Origin: a candidate division FCPU426 bacterium
Lineage (GTDB): Bacteria; Oederibacteriota; Muellerivitia; Muellerivitales; Muellerivitaceae
Direction: 5' to 3'
Assembly (NCBI GenBank): GCA_003152075.1
Contig: PLZG01000022.1
Coordinates: forward strand, 30,300 to 76,808
DNA length: 46,509 bases
Shown: positions 17,979-25,164 of the stretch, piece by piece
Numbering within the stretch: the stretch's first letter is position 1
Layout of the letters: each line of letters begins with the position of its first letter
Program-made: the position numbers and the translations under genes
The notes under the pieces: generated by a model
The model's input: the letters and a program-made list of their open reading frames with translations, nothing else
What the model was told of the DNA's origin: nothing
The model's database searches: none

Positions 17979-19412
17979 TTAGTCTTCCACACCCTCCGAG
18001 AGCCGTTCCATGATGTCGTAAAGCTCGGCCAGGGGCATTTCCTTATCCTGGCGGGTGGAAAGCTGGCGGACTTTATAAGACTTTGGCCCGGGTTTGAAAT
18101 CGGTGATGGCATAGTCAATACCGTTGGCTTGAGCGGTTTCCATCTGCTTTTTGAAGTCCTTCTTTTCCAAACAAGCTTCCACTTGGATACCTTCTGAGCG
18201 CAATTGCTCGGCCAAGGCCATGATGTCCTTTTCAGACTGCCCATTGTTGGCGATAAAAACCCGGGGGTAAATAGTCTGGGAAGCCGACTTTTCTTTTTCC
18301 ACCAAAAGCAACATGATGCGCTCGAATCCCAATGAAATTCCTACCGCAGGCGTGCCCTTAGGCCCACCCAGTTTTTCAATCAACCCGTCATACCGTCCCC
18401 CTCCGCCAATGGAGAAGGAAAATTCTTTGTCTTCCACGTTGATCTCGAAAACCAGCCCGGTGTAATAGTCAAAACCCCTGACGAGGAGTGGATCGAAAAC
18501 GATTTGGGCATCCGGATTAACCGCGTGAATTCTTTGCCGGATGGATTTGATATTGAGCCATATCTTCTCGGCCTGGCCGATCTTGAAATGAACGGGATCA
18601 AGTTGTTTGTGCAGGGCGTTCTTGATGAATCCATCGACCTTGTTCAGGACCTCCATGGAATGGCCCAGGGCCTCGATCTCTTTCATGACCTGGTCGGGGG
18701 GCTGCTTGTCGAGCTTGTCGATGGCCACCGCAATCCCTGCCACCTGGTTAGCGTCCACCCCCATGCCGGTTAACAGGTCTGGAAGCAGCCGTTTGTCGCT
18801 GATCCGAATCTTGAATTTACCGACTCCCAGGGCCTTTAAGACCCGGTCGGTAGCCAGAAGCAACTCTACTTCGTAGGAATCGGAGGTCCCACCCACAATG
18901 TCGATATCGCATTGGTAGAACTCGCGGTAACGGCCTTTTTGGGGTCGGTCAGCCCTCCAGACAGGACCGATGTGATAACAACGAAATGGCTTAGGAAGGT
19001 TGTTGGAGTGGTTGGCGTAATAACGGGCCAACGGAACCGTGAGGTCGAAACGAAGACCCATGTCGGATGAACTATTTTTAAGACGACTTATCCATTCATC
19101 AACAGATTCTTTGTTCTTATCGTCTTCTTCCGCAAAACCTTTTATATTTTTCCGGAAATAATTATGTGCCTCTATAGCCGCATTAGCGTAATCATCGCCA
19201 CGTTTTTCAACTTTAAACATCAACTTCTCGTTCTCGCCACCGCCTTTACCTTGTAACACCTCAATGTTCTCCATGACAGGTGAATCAATGGGCTGAAAAC
19301 CATAGAGTTGGTAATGGTGTTCAATTAGGCGGATAAGCTTTTGACGTAGGAGGGTTTCTTTGGGGAGCCAGTCTCGCATGCCCTTAGGCGGGCCGAATTT
19401 TGTGTTATCCAC
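17979..19412 (-). CDS. hisS: Histidyl-tRNA synthetase with internal insertion
   Basis: Charges tRNA with histidine. About 477 residues from the GTG at 19412, which has AAGGGG six bases upstream; the open frame extends 10 codons further to a TTG without a ribosome site. Motifs: FGPPKGMRDWLP at the N-terminus, motif 2 region LRFDLTVPLARY and RPQKGRYREFYQCDIDI, histidine-specific RGFDYYTGLVFE, motif 3 GISLGFERIMLLL, and a C-terminal anticodon-binding domain. Between FKVEKRG and LRFDLTVP about 45 extra residues occur (DDYANAAIEA through SSDMG), encoded by visibly AT-rich DNA; a shorter spacer exists in some HisRS subfamilies. Followed by a terminator ahead of aspS. Confidence 0.96.
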   Translation of the reverse strand: MDNTKFGPPKGMRDWLPKETLLRQKLIRLIEHHYQLYGFQPIDSPVMENIEVLQGKGGGENEKLMFKVEKRGDDYANAAIEAHNYFRKNIKGFAEEDDKNKESVDEWISRLKNSSSDMGLRFDLTVPLARYYANHSNNLPKPFRCYHIGPVWRADRPQKGRYREFYQCDIDIVGGTSDSYEVELLLATDRVLKALGVGKFKIRISDKRLLPDLLTGMGVDANQVAGIAVAIDKLDKQPPDQVMKEIEALGHSMEVLNKVDGFIKNALHKQLDPVHFKIGQAEKIWLNIKSIRQRIHAVNPDAQIVFDPLLVRGFDYYTGLVFEINVEDKEFSFSIGGGGRYDGLIEKLGGPKGTPAVGISLGFERIMLLLVEKEKSASQTIYPRVFIANNGQSEKDIMALAEQLRSEGIQVEACLEKKDFKKQMETAQANGIDYAITDFKPGPKSYKVRQLSTRQDKEMPLAELYDIMERLSEGVED

Positions 19413-19442
19413 CGAGAACCCCTTAATAAGCAAATGCTTCAA

Positions 19443-19617: not shown

Positions 19618-21948
19618 TTATTGTACCTGCTGGTACTTTCCGCCCTGGATCTTCAAAATCGGCACCAGTTTTTCAGCCTCATTATGCCCGCCGAAACTTG
19701 TCTTGCCGCTAACCCCCTCGAAATCCTTGATGGCCAAAAGGCTGCTGTGGATGTCATCCCGGGTGACGGCCGTTTCCGTGGCTTTTAACATCAAACGGGT
19801 CGCGTCAAAGGCCTGGGCCGCGTACCGGTCCGGCCTTTTGGCGAAGCGTTTCAGGTAATCATCAGTGAATTTTTTAATCAGGTCATTGGAGCTATCGACG
19901 TAGAAACCCGACACGAAATAGGAACCTTCCAAATCTTTGGCCCCTTCCTTCAAAACAATTTCATTTTCCCAGGACTGAGCGCCCAAGAAAACGGGGTTCA
20001 AATCGTCGAAATGAATTTGGGAGACAATTGATGGAATCTCCACCGCGTGCGCCGGAAGGTAAAGACCCTGGTAATTCGAGGCCATTCGGATGAGCGCTGG
20101 GGGCTTTAAGGGATTGTAGGGAATCTTGCTTTGGTAAACCTTCACAAATTGGTTCTTCTTGGCGTCCATTTGGAAAGCCTCGAAATAAACCAAAAAATCC
20201 CAAGTGGGGTGGGCGCTCCAATCGTTTGGCGGGTTCGTTTCAATCACCCTCCCCGTGACAATCAGGGAAGCTTGAATGTCCTGGGCTATATCCCCCCATT
20301 GCTCAGCGCTAACCGCCAATGTGGTACCCTTGAATTCCACGGGCAAACGGCCCATTGCCTGTTGAATCAAGTCATCGCTCCTGAGGATGTAATCGGTTTG
20401 GGTTTTGAGGGATTCCTTAACGGCATCGTTAACGTTTTTCACAATCGAGGGACAAGTCGTATTGGTTAGCCCTTCCACCAATGGGACAAACGCCATGGTA
20501 GGGATTACGACCGAAACCCCCGCCGCGCTTGTCGAGGCTCCGGAGACTTCCTTGGCCTTCAGCAAAATTTTGCCCACTTCTTTTTTCAAGTTGTATTTGA
20601 GTTCCTCAATGCGGCGATTATTCTCCCTCTCAATTTCCTTGAGAATCTCGGGGTCCTGGCCACCAATGGAAACCAATTGGCTCTTGAAATCCGTGGAGTT
20701 GGGAGGATAAGTGACGGAAGAGGTTACGGTGGCCCCCATGGATTGCACGGTTTTCTGGAATTCATTGGAAAGGGTCTGGCCGTAATCGTCCTCGGGCGCC
20801 AGAATGGCGAACCGTTTGAAACCCAGTTTCTCCACCGCGTATCGGGCGATGGACTGGCCCTGCATCTCGTTGGTCATCCCGTTCCCCATGACATAGGGAC
20901 TGATGGTAAAAAGCTCATTTCCCACAGCAGAAGGCACCAACAAAACAATCCGTTGTTGATTGGCCTGAGGGGCTAACTCGGCCGTTTCGGCGTCCCGGAA
21001 GGGGCCAATGATAGCGTCCAGGTTTCCATCCTTGGTAAGTTCCTGATAAACCTTTAAAGCCTGCACCGGATCACCCATGGTGTCACGTACCATTACGGAC
21101 ATCTGCTTGCGGGTTCCCCCTGAGGGGCTGGCCTGCTCAAGCGCCAGGCTGATTCCATTCCAAATCGATTCCCCATAACTTTTAAAGCGGCCCGTTTTAG
21201 GCAACAGCACCCCGATCTTCCAGCTTTTGCCCTGCTGTTGGTTTTGGAGTTGTTGAAGAAGCAACTGGGCGGCCCCTGCGGAAGGGTTATCGGGGCATTG
21301 CTGGGTAAAGGTGTTTAAATGCTCAATGGCCTCGCTTTGCATTGCCGCCTGGGTCTCACGGCTTCCCAATTGGAACAGGGCGAAGCAATTCATGGGTGAG
21401 TCAGGGTAATTGGAAACGTAGCGTTTCAAATCCTCCAGGCCCATGGAATAGGTCAGCATGAATTCCATCATTTGGCGGCTTTGAACCACATAGGGGGATT
21501 TGGGATATTTTTGCATAACCGTCTGGAAGGCCGCTAAAGCGGGAAGGTAATCTTTTTTGTCGTTATAAATCTGGCCTACCATGTACTGGGACTTGTCCAA
21601 CTGGGACGCGGCGTTTGGAACTTGCAGGATCTTCTGGAAAGTTTTCAACGCTTCGGCCAAATTGTCATGGTTGTATTGGTATTGGGCTACGATGTAGTGG
21701 GAAATGAGATTGTGATGGTCCGCGGCCGCGGTCCCGATGGCCGCCAAGGCAGACTGGTAGTCCTGGTTGGTTACGTCTTCATGAACATTCACCAAGGCGG
21801 GAATTTTAGGGCCCGCGGAGGGGGTGGGAGAGGCTTGGGAAGTTGTCGGCTGGGGTTTCGTGGCCGATTCTTCGGGCCTGATGGTCGCCCGACCCCCGCA
21901 ACCAGCTGTCAGAAGAGCCAAAACTAAAAAGGTTGATCGAAATTTCAT
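19618..21948 (-). CDS. LpoA-like lipoprotein: TPR plus periplasmic-binding fold with TolB-N/CsgG-like insertion
   Basis: A 776-residue predicted outer-membrane lipoprotein (lipobox LTAGC, Cys17). A Pro/Thr/Ser linker is followed by TPR-like helices (60-235) and a type I periplasmic-binding (leucine-binding-like) fold starting SWKIGVLLPKTGRFKSYGESI (242) and resuming at about 615-776. TPR plus this fold is the architecture of LpoA, which activates penicillin-binding proteins. Between the halves lie about 180 extra residues: a charged helix (435-468), then VVIPTMAFVPLVEGL, DYILRSDDLIQQAMG and ASLIVTGRVIE (480-570), resembling the TolB N-terminal/CsgG/LpoB fold. A branched-chain amino-acid receptor role is unlikely given the lipid anchor and TPRs. 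Its ATG overlaps the GH5 stop (ATGA). Confidence 0.78.
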   Translation of the reverse strand: MKFRSTFLVLALLTAGCGGRATIRPEESATKPQPTTSQASPTPSAGPKIPALVNVHEDVTNQDYQSALAAIGTAAADHHNLISHYIVAQYQYNHDNLAEALKTFQKILQVPNAASQLDKSQYMVGQIYNDKKDYLPALAAFQTVMQKYPKSPYVVQSRQMMEFMLTYSMGLEDLKRYVSNYPDSPMNCFALFQLGSRETQAAMQSEAIEHLNTFTQQCPDNPSAGAAQLLLQQLQNQQQGKSWKIGVLLPKTGRFKSYGESIWNGISLALEQASPSGGTRKQMSVMVRDTMGDPVQALKVYQELTKDGNLDAIIGPFRDAETAELAPQANQQRIVLLVPSAVGNELFTISPYVMGNGMTNEMQGQSIARYAVEKLGFKRFAILAPEDDYGQTLSNEFQKTVQSMGATVTSSVTYPPNSTDFKSQLVSIGGQDPEILKEIERENNRRIEELKYNLKKEVGKILLKAKEVSGASTSAAGVSVVIPTMAFVPLVEGLTNTTCPSIVKNVNDAVKESLKTQTDYILRSDDLIQQAMGRLPVEFKGTTLAVSAEQWGDIAQDIQASLIVTGRVIETNPPNDWSAHPTWDFLVYFEAFQMDAKKNQFVKVYQSKIPYNPLKPPALIRMASNYQGLYLPAHAVEIPSIVSQIHFDDLNPVFLGAQSWENEIVLKEGAKDLEGSYFVSGFYVDSSNDLIKKFTDDYLKRFAKRPDRYAAQAFDATRLMLKATETAVTRDDIHSSLLAIKDFEGVSGKTSFGGHNEAEKLVPILKIQGGKYQQVQ

Positions 21949-23003
21949 TTAATCCCCGATTGAAGAATTTCCAGCATTTCCCCGTCCAATGGTCCCGTTT
22001 GGCCATTAGCCGTTTTGGAATAAATCCCAAAATCCAGCCACTTGTAATTCCAGTAAGCCCAACCAGTTTTCATCTCAGAAAAGAGGCTGACCACATCCCT
22101 CGTCCAATTCAGGCGGGCTTCCCTGGGGGCCTGGTCGTAAACCCCAAACTCCCCGCAATAAAGGCCATACCCTTCCTTGGCCAACCGGCGTACGGGGCTC
22201 AACAATTCTCTCAAGGCTTCCCTATTCCAAACCCGGTTCTCGAATTCCAATGTTTCCCGTGTCATCGTCGGCAGATTCCTGGCAAGATACTCAGCCGTCT
22301 TTGGGACAGCTCCGGGATAGGCAACCGTTTCTTTATAACCTTCCCCGCCCTGCCACCAAGGGGCCTTTTGATGGGTCACCAACATGGGAAGGTAAAAATG
22401 AAAACTGTAAACCAAGTTCGGCCCCTGAACCGCTTGGGCCAAATCCTCCAGTTTAAGGACCGAACCCCAATAGGTCGATTCCACCATGATCACCCGAAGC
22501 CGGTCCTCGGCTTGGATGGCCTTACAAACTTTCACGGCCACCCTGTTCCAATCGGCGGCATGGCTTGCCGTTGGCTCGTTTAAGATATCAAACCAAAGAG
22601 GAGCGTCCATTCCCTTCAGGGCATGGGCCAATTCAACCCAAAGGCCGCAAAAAGAGTCTAAATCTTCGTCGTTTTTCCACAAATTATCAAGTTCGGGTTT
22701 GGCGAAGGAATGCCAGGGAACCTGGTGCAAATCTAAAACCGTTAAGAGTTTCGCGTCCCTTGCCCAACCCAAAACCTCTTTGAGGAAAGCCAACCTTTTT
22801 GGCGAAAGCTTCCCCCGCCCGGCTTTTTCGAATAACCAGGGCCCATCCACAGGCAAGCGAATGGAGTTAAAACCCCACTTGGAAATCGTTTCGAAATCGC
22901 TCTTCTTGATGAAATTCTCAATGTGCTTATCGGACAGGTCGGATTGGGAAAGCCAGCCGCCCAAGTTGAAACCAACGGGGCGAACTAGAATCGGAGAGAT
23001 CAT
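21945..23003 (-). CDS. Cellulase-family glycoside hydrolase, GH5-like
   Basis: A 352-residue clan GH-A TIM-barrel enzyme resembling GH5 endoglucanases/glucosidases. Recognisable parts are GFNLGGWL at the start, NSIRLPVDGPWLF, VLDLHQVPWHS, the acid/base in DILNEP (Glu143), YSFHFYLP, and the nucleophile in YCGEFGVY (Glu285), ending in WAYWNYKWLDFGIY. No signal peptide is present, so it probably acts on intracellular glycans or glycosides; substrate cannot be named. AGGGA six bases upstream supports the ATG at 23003. It overlaps the LpoA-like gene by 4 nt and follows dut by 18 bp. Confidence 0.88.
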   Translation of the reverse strand: MISPILVRPVGFNLGGWLSQSDLSDKHIENFIKKSDFETISKWGFNSIRLPVDGPWLFEKAGRGKLSPKRLAFLKEVLGWARDAKLLTVLDLHQVPWHSFAKPELDNLWKNDEDLDSFCGLWVELAHALKGMDAPLWFDILNEPTASHAADWNRVAVKVCKAIQAEDRLRVIMVESTYWGSVLKLEDLAQAVQGPNLVYSFHFYLPMLVTHQKAPWWQGGEGYKETVAYPGAVPKTAEYLARNLPTMTRETLEFENRVWNREALRELLSPVRRLAKEGYGLYCGEFGVYDQAPREARLNWTRDVVSLFSEMKTGWAYWNYKWLDFGIYSKTANGQTGPLDGEMLEILQSGIK

Positions 23004-23553: not shown

Positions 23554-25164
23554 TCAAGAATTCAAAACTTTATTGTTTTTTTCAACGTGGGCGGCTTCCC
23601 GAATCTTATCTTCCATATCAACAAAGGTTTTCGGAGGGAAGCAAAAGAAAGGATATTCCCGAAAACCCAGCACATTCCTGGTTTCCTTCAACTTGCCGAT
23701 ATCCAGGAGGCCCTGTTCCAGGATTCGAATAGCCTCTGTATAACCCTCATAGAGGGCGAAGTTAAGTTCCTTTATTTTATAGGCCGCTTGGGTTTTCTGA
23801 TTTGGATCCTGTAACGCCCCAAGCCACTTCACTTTGGAATCAGCTAAATTCTTTAAAAAGGCGTTACTCAAGTACTCCTTGAATTTCGGTTGCATGAAAA
23901 GGGGCAGTTCCTTTTGCCAGGCTTCGGATTTCGTAAAAAGGTACTCGGGATTTTTGGCCAGGGCCCTTCCCCACCACTCGATTTTTTCCTCATGGGAAAG
24001 GATTTTTTCCATGGCCCGGCTTTCCTCCGGATCTACCAAGTAAGTGGCCGAAACGACCCCATAGGCTAAGGGGTTCATCTTGAACACCTTGGTAAACAAC
24101 AGGTCCCCCACTTCCTCATAAGTCGACCCGCCGACGCCATGGATGAAAAAATCACAAAGGTACATGCGGCAGAAAAGGGTTTGGGGAATGGCCTTGGGCC
24201 AGAGGGAAAGAGCCAAAGTACCTATCTCCCCGGTAAGCTCATCAAAATTCAAGCTAAAGGACTCGCCGCCCTTAGTTTTGATCATCATGTGCTTACCTTC
24301 TTTTTTAGCCATGAGGGAATGGCGCTGGTGATATTTGGTCGCCCCCCAGAAAGGTATCTCAAACCACCAATTTTCGAATTTGAGGTTCGGCATGGGGGTG
24401 AGGTCATGGGTAATCCCGTGTTTCTTTCGGTACTCATCCAGGGATTTGTTGTAGCTTTCCGTCATCTCGGGCAGGTTCGTAAGCCATTGGGCGACAAATT
24501 GGAGGAAGGGCTCGGAAGCCCAAAGCTTGCTCCCAATAAGAATGGTTCGGCTGGTGCCGCAAATTTCGTCCAACATCTTAATCGTGTGGATATGGACATC
24601 GTTCCAAGTGGGGGTTTTCCCAACACCCTTCATCACTTTTTCGCTGAAGTCACTCAGGAGGGGTTTGATCTTTTCAGGGCAATAGACCTGGCCGTCGGCG
24701 AATATTTTCTCAAGGGCCTTGGCCTCGGGCGCTGGCAGGAAGGCGTAAGGGGTCACCCTCTCCTGTTGTTTCATGTCCTTGGACGAATAAAATTCCAATA
24801 TCTTTTTCCGGGCCTTGCCGTTTTCCTCCACTTCCGGAAGGTAATGCAAAAATTCCGGAACCAGAGCTGTGTCGGTGATTTTATGGCAAGCCGTGCCCGA
24901 AATGGACTCAGCCAGGATACTGGCGGAGAGGCACTTGGCCCATACTCCAGGATGGAAAAAGATAGGTTGGTGGCCTGAGAGAACAAGGGGTTGTTCAGTG
25001 GGTAGTTTGAGGAACTCCCGGACCTTATGGGCGGTTTGGCCCCACAAAGTTTGTTTAACCAGCCTTTCCCGGTTGCGAAGGGCATCTTCCTTCCACTGGA
25101 CAAGGGGCGGTTCAAAGTAAAATTCACCGTGGTGCTTCGGTATTTTGTCCGTGATGTCAGCCAT
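23554..25164 (-). CDS. BshC-like conserved protein of unknown function
   Basis: A 536-residue protein I recognise only distantly. The segment VLSGHQPIFFHPGVWAKCLSASILAE (residues about 60-85) occupies the place of the GQQ-containing N-terminal motif of BshC, the putative cysteine-adding enzyme of bacillithiol synthesis, and a later FFIHGVGGSTYEEVGDLL (about 350-367) also resembles that family; total length is similar. It is clearly divergent, with GHQP instead of GQQ. No bshA or bshB homologue is adjacent, so bacillithiol synthesis should not be assumed. GAGGT six bases before the ATG supports the start. The C-terminal third is helical (KIKELNFALYEGYTEAIRIL), as in the coiled coil of BshC. 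Confidence 0.6.
   Translation of the reverse strand: MADITDKIPKHHGEFYFEPPLVQWKEDALRNRERLVKQTLWGQTAHKVREFLKLPTEQPLVLSGHQPIFFHPGVWAKCLSASILAESISGTACHKITDTALVPEFLHYLPEVEENGKARKKILEFYSSKDMKQQERVTPYAFLPAPEAKALEKIFADGQVYCPEKIKPLLSDFSEKVMKGVGKTPTWNDVHIHTIKMLDEICGTSRTILIGSKLWASEPFLQFVAQWLTNLPEMTESYNKSLDEYRKKHGITHDLTPMPNLKFENWWFEIPFWGATKYHQRHSLMAKKEGKHMMIKTKGGESFSLNFDELTGEIGTLALSLWPKAIPQTLFCRMYLCDFFIHGVGGSTYEEVGDLLFTKVFKMNPLAYGVVSATYLVDPEESRAMEKILSHEEKIEWWGRALAKNPEYLFTKSEAWQKELPLFMQPKFKEYLSNAFLKNLADSKVKWLGALQDPNQKTQAAYKIKELNFALYEGYTEAIRILEQGLLDIGKLKETRNVLGFREYPFFCFPPKTFVDMEDKIREAAHVEKNNKVLNS

What the first reader, a model, noticed from the sequence alone, without database searches (positions are those of the whole stretch)
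19618..21948. LpoA-like protein with a TolB-N/CsgG/LpoB-like domain inserted in its binding fold
LpoA (TPR plus periplasmic-binding fold) and LpoB (small TolB-N/CsgG-like fold) are separate outer-membrane activators of penicillin-binding proteins in enterobacteria. Here a stretch with IPTMAFVPLVEGL, YILRSDDLIQQ and ASLIVTGRVIE sits between the two lobes of the binding fold. If correct, one lipoprotein joins both activator types. Lobe boundaries are read from the sequence; the domain identity is my inference.
Basis: inference. Interest (0 to 1): 0.6.

Follow-up and report, generated by a model that had tools for sequence, protein, structure and literature searches.

The report
LpoA-like lipoprotein with inserted LpoB-fold domain
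In a little-known bacterial phylum (the one holding candidate division FCPU426), an outer-membrane lipoprotein that resembles the cell-wall-synthesis activator LpoA carries, inside its binding fold, a second domain of the type found in the other activator, LpoB; the combination is phylum-wide, was not seen elsewhere, and would be a new way of building a cell-wall regulator if the function holds.

Summary
The 776-aa ORF (19618-21948, -) is a predicted lipoprotein with TPRs and a type I periplasmic-binding fold related to LpoA (LppC, 47 bits, above cut-off; a LivK-like control from the same genome gives no match). Residues ~484-611 form a TolB-N/CsgG/LpoB-type domain. AlphaFold gives that topology. 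Foldseek of the isolated domain returns CT253, GNA1162, LpoB, FlgT, CsgG and PelC. A profile of relatives finds only LpoB in the PDB, weakly (E 0.008). One correction: it sits inside lobe 2, not between the lobes. Its slot is where E. coli LpoA has disordered region 2. The domain fills this slot (160-227 aa) in every complete homologue of the phylum read; 29 homologues from other phyla have short loops (5-101 aa). It is under purifying selection. In other phyla, insert-free homologues often lie tail-to-tail with class A PBPs carrying the LpoA docking domain; in this phylum that docking domain was not found in class A PBPs. PBP regulation is therefore the best functional guess, but unproven. 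Whether the domain is LpoB itself, rather than another member of the superfamily, is not shown.

The parts
19618..21948 (-). lpoA-like gene with inserted domain, 776 aa
   Evidence: ORF; relatives in nearly all genomes of the phylum
21898..21948 (-). signal peptide and lipobox, residues 1-17 (Cys17, Gly at +2)
   Evidence: sequence TAGC|GG; Cys conserved in >=90% of the alignment
21229..21783 (-). TPR domain, residues ~56-240
   Evidence: Pfam TPR_6 1.3e-8 and others; all-helical in the model; missing in two families of the phylum
20659..21228 (-). type I periplasmic-binding fold, first part (residues 241-430: lobe 1 and start of lobe 2)
   Evidence: Peripla_BP_6 7.7e-50, LppC 1.5e-12; LivK, LivJ and full-length LpoA in Foldseek
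20536..20652 (-). long helix at the start of the insert, residues 433-471
   Evidence: AlphaFold model; charged, conserved in the alignment
20500..20535 (-). low-confidence linker, residues 472-483 (Pro/Thr-rich in many relatives)
   Evidence: pLDDT < 50 at 473-480; alignments
20116..20499 (-). inserted TolB-N/CsgG/LpoB-type domain, residues 484-611
   Evidence: topology; Foldseek hits to GNA1162, LpoB, FlgT, CsgG, PelC; profile hits to LpoB
20071..20115 (-). return segment to lobe 2, residues 612-626
   Evidence: alignment
19621..20070 (-). type I periplasmic-binding fold, remainder (residues 627-776)
   Evidence: alignment with LivK and E. coli LpoA; profile C block
17979..19442 (-). hisS, gene after lpoA-like; adjacency kept in most loci checked across the phylum (context, not part of the mechanism)
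   Evidence: NCBIfam hisS; synteny
21945..23003 (-). GH5-family gene overlapping the lpoA-like start by 4 bases (context)
   Evidence: Pfam Cellulase 3.3e-32; neighbour kept in relatives

Best explanation
The gene encodes an outer-membrane lipoprotein of the LpoA type: Cys-anchored, a rigid TPR stalk, then a periplasmic-binding-fold head that has lost its amino-acid pocket. Into lobe 2 of the head, at the loop that is a disordered region in E. coli LpoA, the ancestor of this phylum gained a TolB-N/CsgG/LpoB-type domain, carried on a long helix and a flexible linker. The structure, position, spread and selection on it are shown by computation. [quoted passage not shown] Probabilities: architecture about 0.93; LpoA-like role in peptidoglycan synthesis about 0.5; the inserted domain itself contacting the PBP about 0.3.
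For: LppC match above cut-off spanning the TPR/binding-fold junction; a LivK control from the same genome has none. hhalign with E. coli LpoA 97%, E 1e-11. Full-length H. influenzae LpoA is among the fold hits and aligns across both domains, though with low TM-scores. The insert profile (24 seqs) finds only LpoB structures at E <= 10; the wider profile again has LpoB first, then PelC and FlgT. Members match FlgO 8.5e-6, FlgT_M 6e-5, LpoB 9.5e-4, CsgG 3.8e-3 and NCBIfam LpoB in 6 of 24. Foldseek of the domain: CT253 1.9e-5, GNA1162 2.4e-4, LpoB 4.9e-4, FlgT, CsgG, PelC. hhalign: LpoB 54-60%, a CsgG-like lipoprotein of the same genome 94%, unrelated NagZ 0.8%. Slot 160-227 aa in the phylum versus 5-101 aa in 29 homologues from other phyla. 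The same slot holds E. coli LpoA flexible region 2, S493-N531 (PMC4111904). dN in the insert equals that in the lobes (0.184 vs 0.190). Outside the phylum, 5 of 20 loci picked without regard to neighbours have a class A PBP tail-to-tail, mostly with the ODD/PCB_OB domain. Amino-acid-binding residues are lost. The genome has BamA (Omp85) and LolA.
Against: In this phylum the gene sits beside hisS, not beside a PBP. The class A PBPs read here show only transglycosylase and transpeptidase domains; no convincing ODD or UB2H in the phylum. Many genomes outside the window's own family also carry a separate LpoB, so the fusion is not simply a merger of the only two activators. The TolB-N/CsgG fold serves many roles (secretion, flagella, curli, polysaccharide export). 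The isolated-domain model is of low confidence (pLDDT 59), and the window member alone matches no family.
Confidence: 0.5

Rival explanations
1. It is an envelope scaffold or assembly lipoprotein unrelated to PBPs: the TolB-N-type domain acts as an oligomerisation or partner-binding module, as in GNA1162, PelC, FlgO/FlgT or CsgG, and the binding fold is a passive head.
For: FlgO and FlgT_M give better family scores than LpoB; a CsgG-like lipoprotein of the same genome matches the profile better than LpoB; Foldseek ranks CT253 and GNA1162 above LpoB; class A PBPs of the phylum lack known docking domains.
Against: Insert-free homologues neighbour ODD-bearing class A PBPs in other phyla; LppC match above cut-off; LpoB is the top solved structure by sequence.
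Confidence: 0.33
2. It is a ligand sensor or transport binding protein of the LivK kind, with TPR and TolB-N decorations.
For: The binding fold scores far better with Peripla_BP_6 than with LppC; LivK/LivJ are the top fold hits.
Against: Pocket residues present in the LivK-like protein of the same genome are replaced here and in most relatives (residue roles from general knowledge of LIV-binding proteins). No ABC transporter genes among the neighbours examined. A separate LivK-like protein exists. The lipobox, TPR stalk and insert are not features of such proteins.
Confidence: 0.1
3. The insert is only an enlarged loop of the ordinary binding fold, and its resemblance to LpoB is a chance match.
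For: Window member alone matches no family; other phyla have loops of up to ~100 aa in the same slot; single-profile E-values are modest (0.008-0.02).
Against: Independent sequence profiles, a beta-alpha-alpha-alpha-beta-beta-beta topology and Foldseek hits nearly all to one superfamily; unrelated control 0.8%.
Confidence: 0.04

Closest known systems
LpoA (LppC, PF04348; E. coli b3147, H. influenzae structures 5kcn, 5vbg)
   Same: Outer-membrane-type lipoprotein, TPR stalk plus type I periplasmic-binding head; profile and fold matches; amino-acid pocket lost; insertion slot shared with E. coli flexible region 2.
   Different: A ~128-residue folded domain plus helix in that slot; no ODD in the PBPs of the phylum; gene beside hisS; about 17% identity to E. 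coli LpoA.
LpoB (PF13036, TIGR02722; 4q6l, 4q6z, 2mii)
   Same: Closest solved structure by sequence profile; same superfamily fold; carried on a flexible linker.
   Different: Inserted in another protein, not a free lipoprotein; no match at curated cut-offs for the window member; no UB2H partner; separate true LpoB genes exist in many genomes of the phylum.
GNA1162, CT253, FlgO/FlgT middle domain, CsgG, PelC
   Same: Same TolB-N/CsgG-type fold family by Foldseek and Pfam.
   Different: Free-standing or differently arranged proteins with other roles.
Insert-free LpoA-like proteins of other phyla (e.g. L022, L037, L101, L103)
   Same: Same TPR plus binding-fold architecture, detected by the same profile.
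   Different: Short or disordered loop in the slot; several lie tail-to-tail with class A PBPs, most of them with ODD.

Membership tests
LpoA / LppC | Lipoprotein signal with TPR stalk and type I periplasmic-binding head | tested here: met
   Lipobox, Pfam TPR and Peripla_BP_6, model
LpoA / LppC | Score above the Pfam LppC cut-off | tested here: met
   47.4 bits vs 28.8; LivK control has no match; E. coli LpoA 451 bits
LpoA / LppC | Cognate class A PBP with ODD (PCB_OB) in the same genome | tested here: not met
   No PCB_OB in G000; its class A PBPs carry only Transgly and Transpeptidase, plus a sub-cut-off BiPBP_C match in one
LpoA / LppC | Binds and stimulates PBP1A transpeptidase | not testable with these tools
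   Needs biochemistry
TolB-N / CsgG / LpoB superfamily (inserted domain) | Fold topology and structural match | tested here: met
   topology; Foldseek (model confidence modest)
TolB-N / CsgG / LpoB superfamily (inserted domain) | Sequence-profile match | tested here: met
LpoB in the strict sense | Match to PF13036 / TIGR02722 at the curated cut-off | tested here: not met
   Window insert: no match; only weak matches in some relatives
LpoB in the strict sense | Partner PBP with UB2H | tested here: not met
   UB2H absent from G000 and its family; not in the class A PBPs scanned
LpoB in the strict sense | Binds and stimulates PBP1B | not testable with these tools
   Needs biochemistry
LivK-type substrate-binding protein | Conserved amino-acid pocket residues | tested here: not met
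   Ser, Thr, Tyr and acidic positions present in L068 are replaced

The most novel reading that the evidence does not exclude
A phylum-wide, single-protein activator of peptidoglycan synthesis in which an LpoA head and an LpoB-type domain contact one class A PBP lacking both known docking domains, so that the two activators known separately in enterobacteria work here as one part.
Probability: 0.22. Interest if true: 0.75.

Novelty: new variant of a known kind. Interest (0 to 1): 0.55.

Why it matters
LpoA and LpoB have been described as recent, separate inventions of gamma-proteobacteria and enterobacteria (PMC3060616). A deep phylum that fixed an LpoA-like lipoprotein with an LpoB-fold insert, and insert-free LpoA-like genes tail-to-tail with ODD-bearing PBPs in other phyla, suggest that outer-membrane control of cell-wall synthesis is older and more modular than that. 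The shared insertion slot also gives a testable idea for the unexplained disordered region 2 of E. coli LpoA: a site facing the partner.

Tried and rejected
Considered a frame or assembly artefact: rejected (in-frame in all complete homologues of the phylum, purifying selection). Considered a plain ABC binding protein: disfavoured (pocket lost, TPR stalk, LppC match). Single-protein search of genome contigs found nothing and the 24-sequence alignment was too diverse; a 7-sequence alignment then gave named relatives. Viral contigs: none. Pfam/NCBIfam on the window insert alone: no meaningful match, hence the family profiles. Weak PCB_OB hits in the phylum lie in 125-691-aa frames at places other than the class A PBPs, so were not counted as ODD; weak UB2H hits lie in other frames, mostly over 1000 aa. 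Isolated-domain AlphaFold was of low confidence; its fold hits are used only with the sequence evidence. Literature searches found no report of such a fusion in the open-licence library. Structure prediction was given only window proteins and loci from the search for related loci, as its rule states.

Full report
Observation. The ORF at 19618-21948 (-) encodes 776 aa with a lipobox at Cys17. Pfam finds TPR repeats, Peripla_BP_6 (7.7e-50) and LppC, the LpoA family (47.4 bits, cut-off 28.8). A LivK-like protein of the same genome has no LppC match, so the LppC signal is not a generic property of binding proteins. E. coli LpoA aligns with the family profile (hhalign 97%, E 1e-11), and full-length H. 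influenzae LpoA is among the fold hits of the model and aligns across stalk and head, although with low TM-scores and large rmsd.

The inserted domain. Homologues were gathered from the phylum (candidate division FCPU426 by record titles). The extra stretch aligns across it with the pattern typical of TolB-N/CsgG domains (a VAIIRF-type first strand..SYALA....ADYLIVG.I). A profile of 24 inserts finds only LpoB structures in the whole PDB at E <= 10 (best 0.008); a wider profile ranks LpoB first, then PelC and FlgT. Single members match FlgO (8.5e-6), FlgT_M, LpoB and CsgG in Pfam and LpoB in NCBIfam (6 of 24). hhalign gives 54-60% with E. coli LpoB, 94% with a CsgG-like lipoprotein of the same genome, 50% with the phylum's own separate LpoB, and 0.8% with unrelated NagZ. 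AlphaFold of the full protein (mean pLDDT 75) shows a long helix 433-471, a low-confidence linker, then strand-helix-helix-helix-strand-strand-strand at 484-611 with short extra strands. The isolated domain, though of low confidence (pLDDT 59), matches CT253, GNA1162, LpoB, FlgT, CsgG and PelC in Foldseek; 8z5n ('LPHT ring', possibly the same flagellar ring protein) is also among the first five. Three lines agree on the superfamily; they do not single out LpoB.

Where it sits. The insertion lies between the helix ending DFKSQLVSIGG and the strand QGLYLPA of lobe 2, not between the lobes. E. coli LpoA aligned with the family has its loop at the same place. NMR work found that loop, region 2 (S493-N531), disordered and absent from H. 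influenzae LpoA (PMC4111904; numbering checked). The slot is 160-227 aa in the phylum, 5-101 aa in 29 LpoA-like or related proteins of other phyla, and 4 aa in LivK.

Spread and selection. The insert profile matches in 41 of 45 genomes of the phylum, with about 32 in the long frame of this gene; two families (541-576-aa proteins) lack the TPR stalk but keep a shorter version of the domain. Among 384 genomes searched, the matches listed outside the phylum did not cover the insert (that list is cut at its end). dN in the insert equals that in the lobes (0.184 vs 0.190), and dN/dS is about 0.2 for the close pair L003/L004, so the domain is under purifying selection. In most loci checked the gene lies next to hisS, which points to vertical inheritance.

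Function. Among 20 loci taken from other phyla without regard to neighbours, 5 have a class A PBP immediately tail-to-tail (L090, L099, L100, L102, L103), and two further loci chosen because of a neighbour also have one adjacent (L085, L086). Of the six such PBPs scanned, four carry PCB_OB (the Pfam domain taken here to correspond to ODD) above the cut-off, one weakly (L090), one not (L099). This supports an LpoA-like role for the insert-free relatives. In FCPU426 the class A PBPs read (L110, L111, L112, L113) lack PCB_OB and UB2H, and G002, G005 and G008 have a single PF00912 protein and no separate LpoB. The pocket residues of LivK are lost (their roles are from general knowledge). The genome has BamA (Omp85) and LolA, as expected for outer-membrane lipoproteins. 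From this I infer, without proof, that the protein regulates a class A PBP and that the inserted domain adds or replaces a contact. An envelope scaffold role is the main rival.

Known or new. The parts are known; the arrangement is not reported in the literature searched, a library that lacks most subscription journals. It is a new variant of the LpoA type. It fails two strict LpoB tests (family cut-off, UB2H partner) and one LpoA test (ODD partner), so the claim made is 'LpoA-like with a TolB-N/CsgG/LpoB-type domain', not 'LpoA-LpoB fusion'.

Noticed in passing
L090, L099, L100, L102, L103 (also L085, L086): LpoA-like genes without insert lie next to class A PBP genes, in six of the seven tail-to-tail, in phyla other than that of the window; most of the PBPs scanned carry the PCB_OB (ODD-type) domain, whereas ODD was described as limited to gamma-proteobacteria (PMC3060616).
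   Followed up: partly
L069-L076: Two families of the phylum have 541-576-aa versions that lost the TPR stalk but kept the inserted domain.
   Followed up: partly
L038-L047: Separate LpoB genes (~205 aa) in the phylum (and in L047, another phylum) are followed by a conserved ~440-aa lipoprotein-like gene of unknown role.
   Followed up: no
window 23554-25164 (-): A 536-aa protein conserved in the window's family and order has no Pfam or NCBIfam match at the thresholds used.
   Followed up: no
window 21945-21948: A GH5-family gene overlaps the start of the lpoA-like gene by 4 bases; the pair is kept in relatives.
   Followed up: partly
L114 (G000 contig C29): A separate CsgG-like lipoprotein in the same genome is the best full-genome match to the insert profile after the gene itself.
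   Followed up: partly
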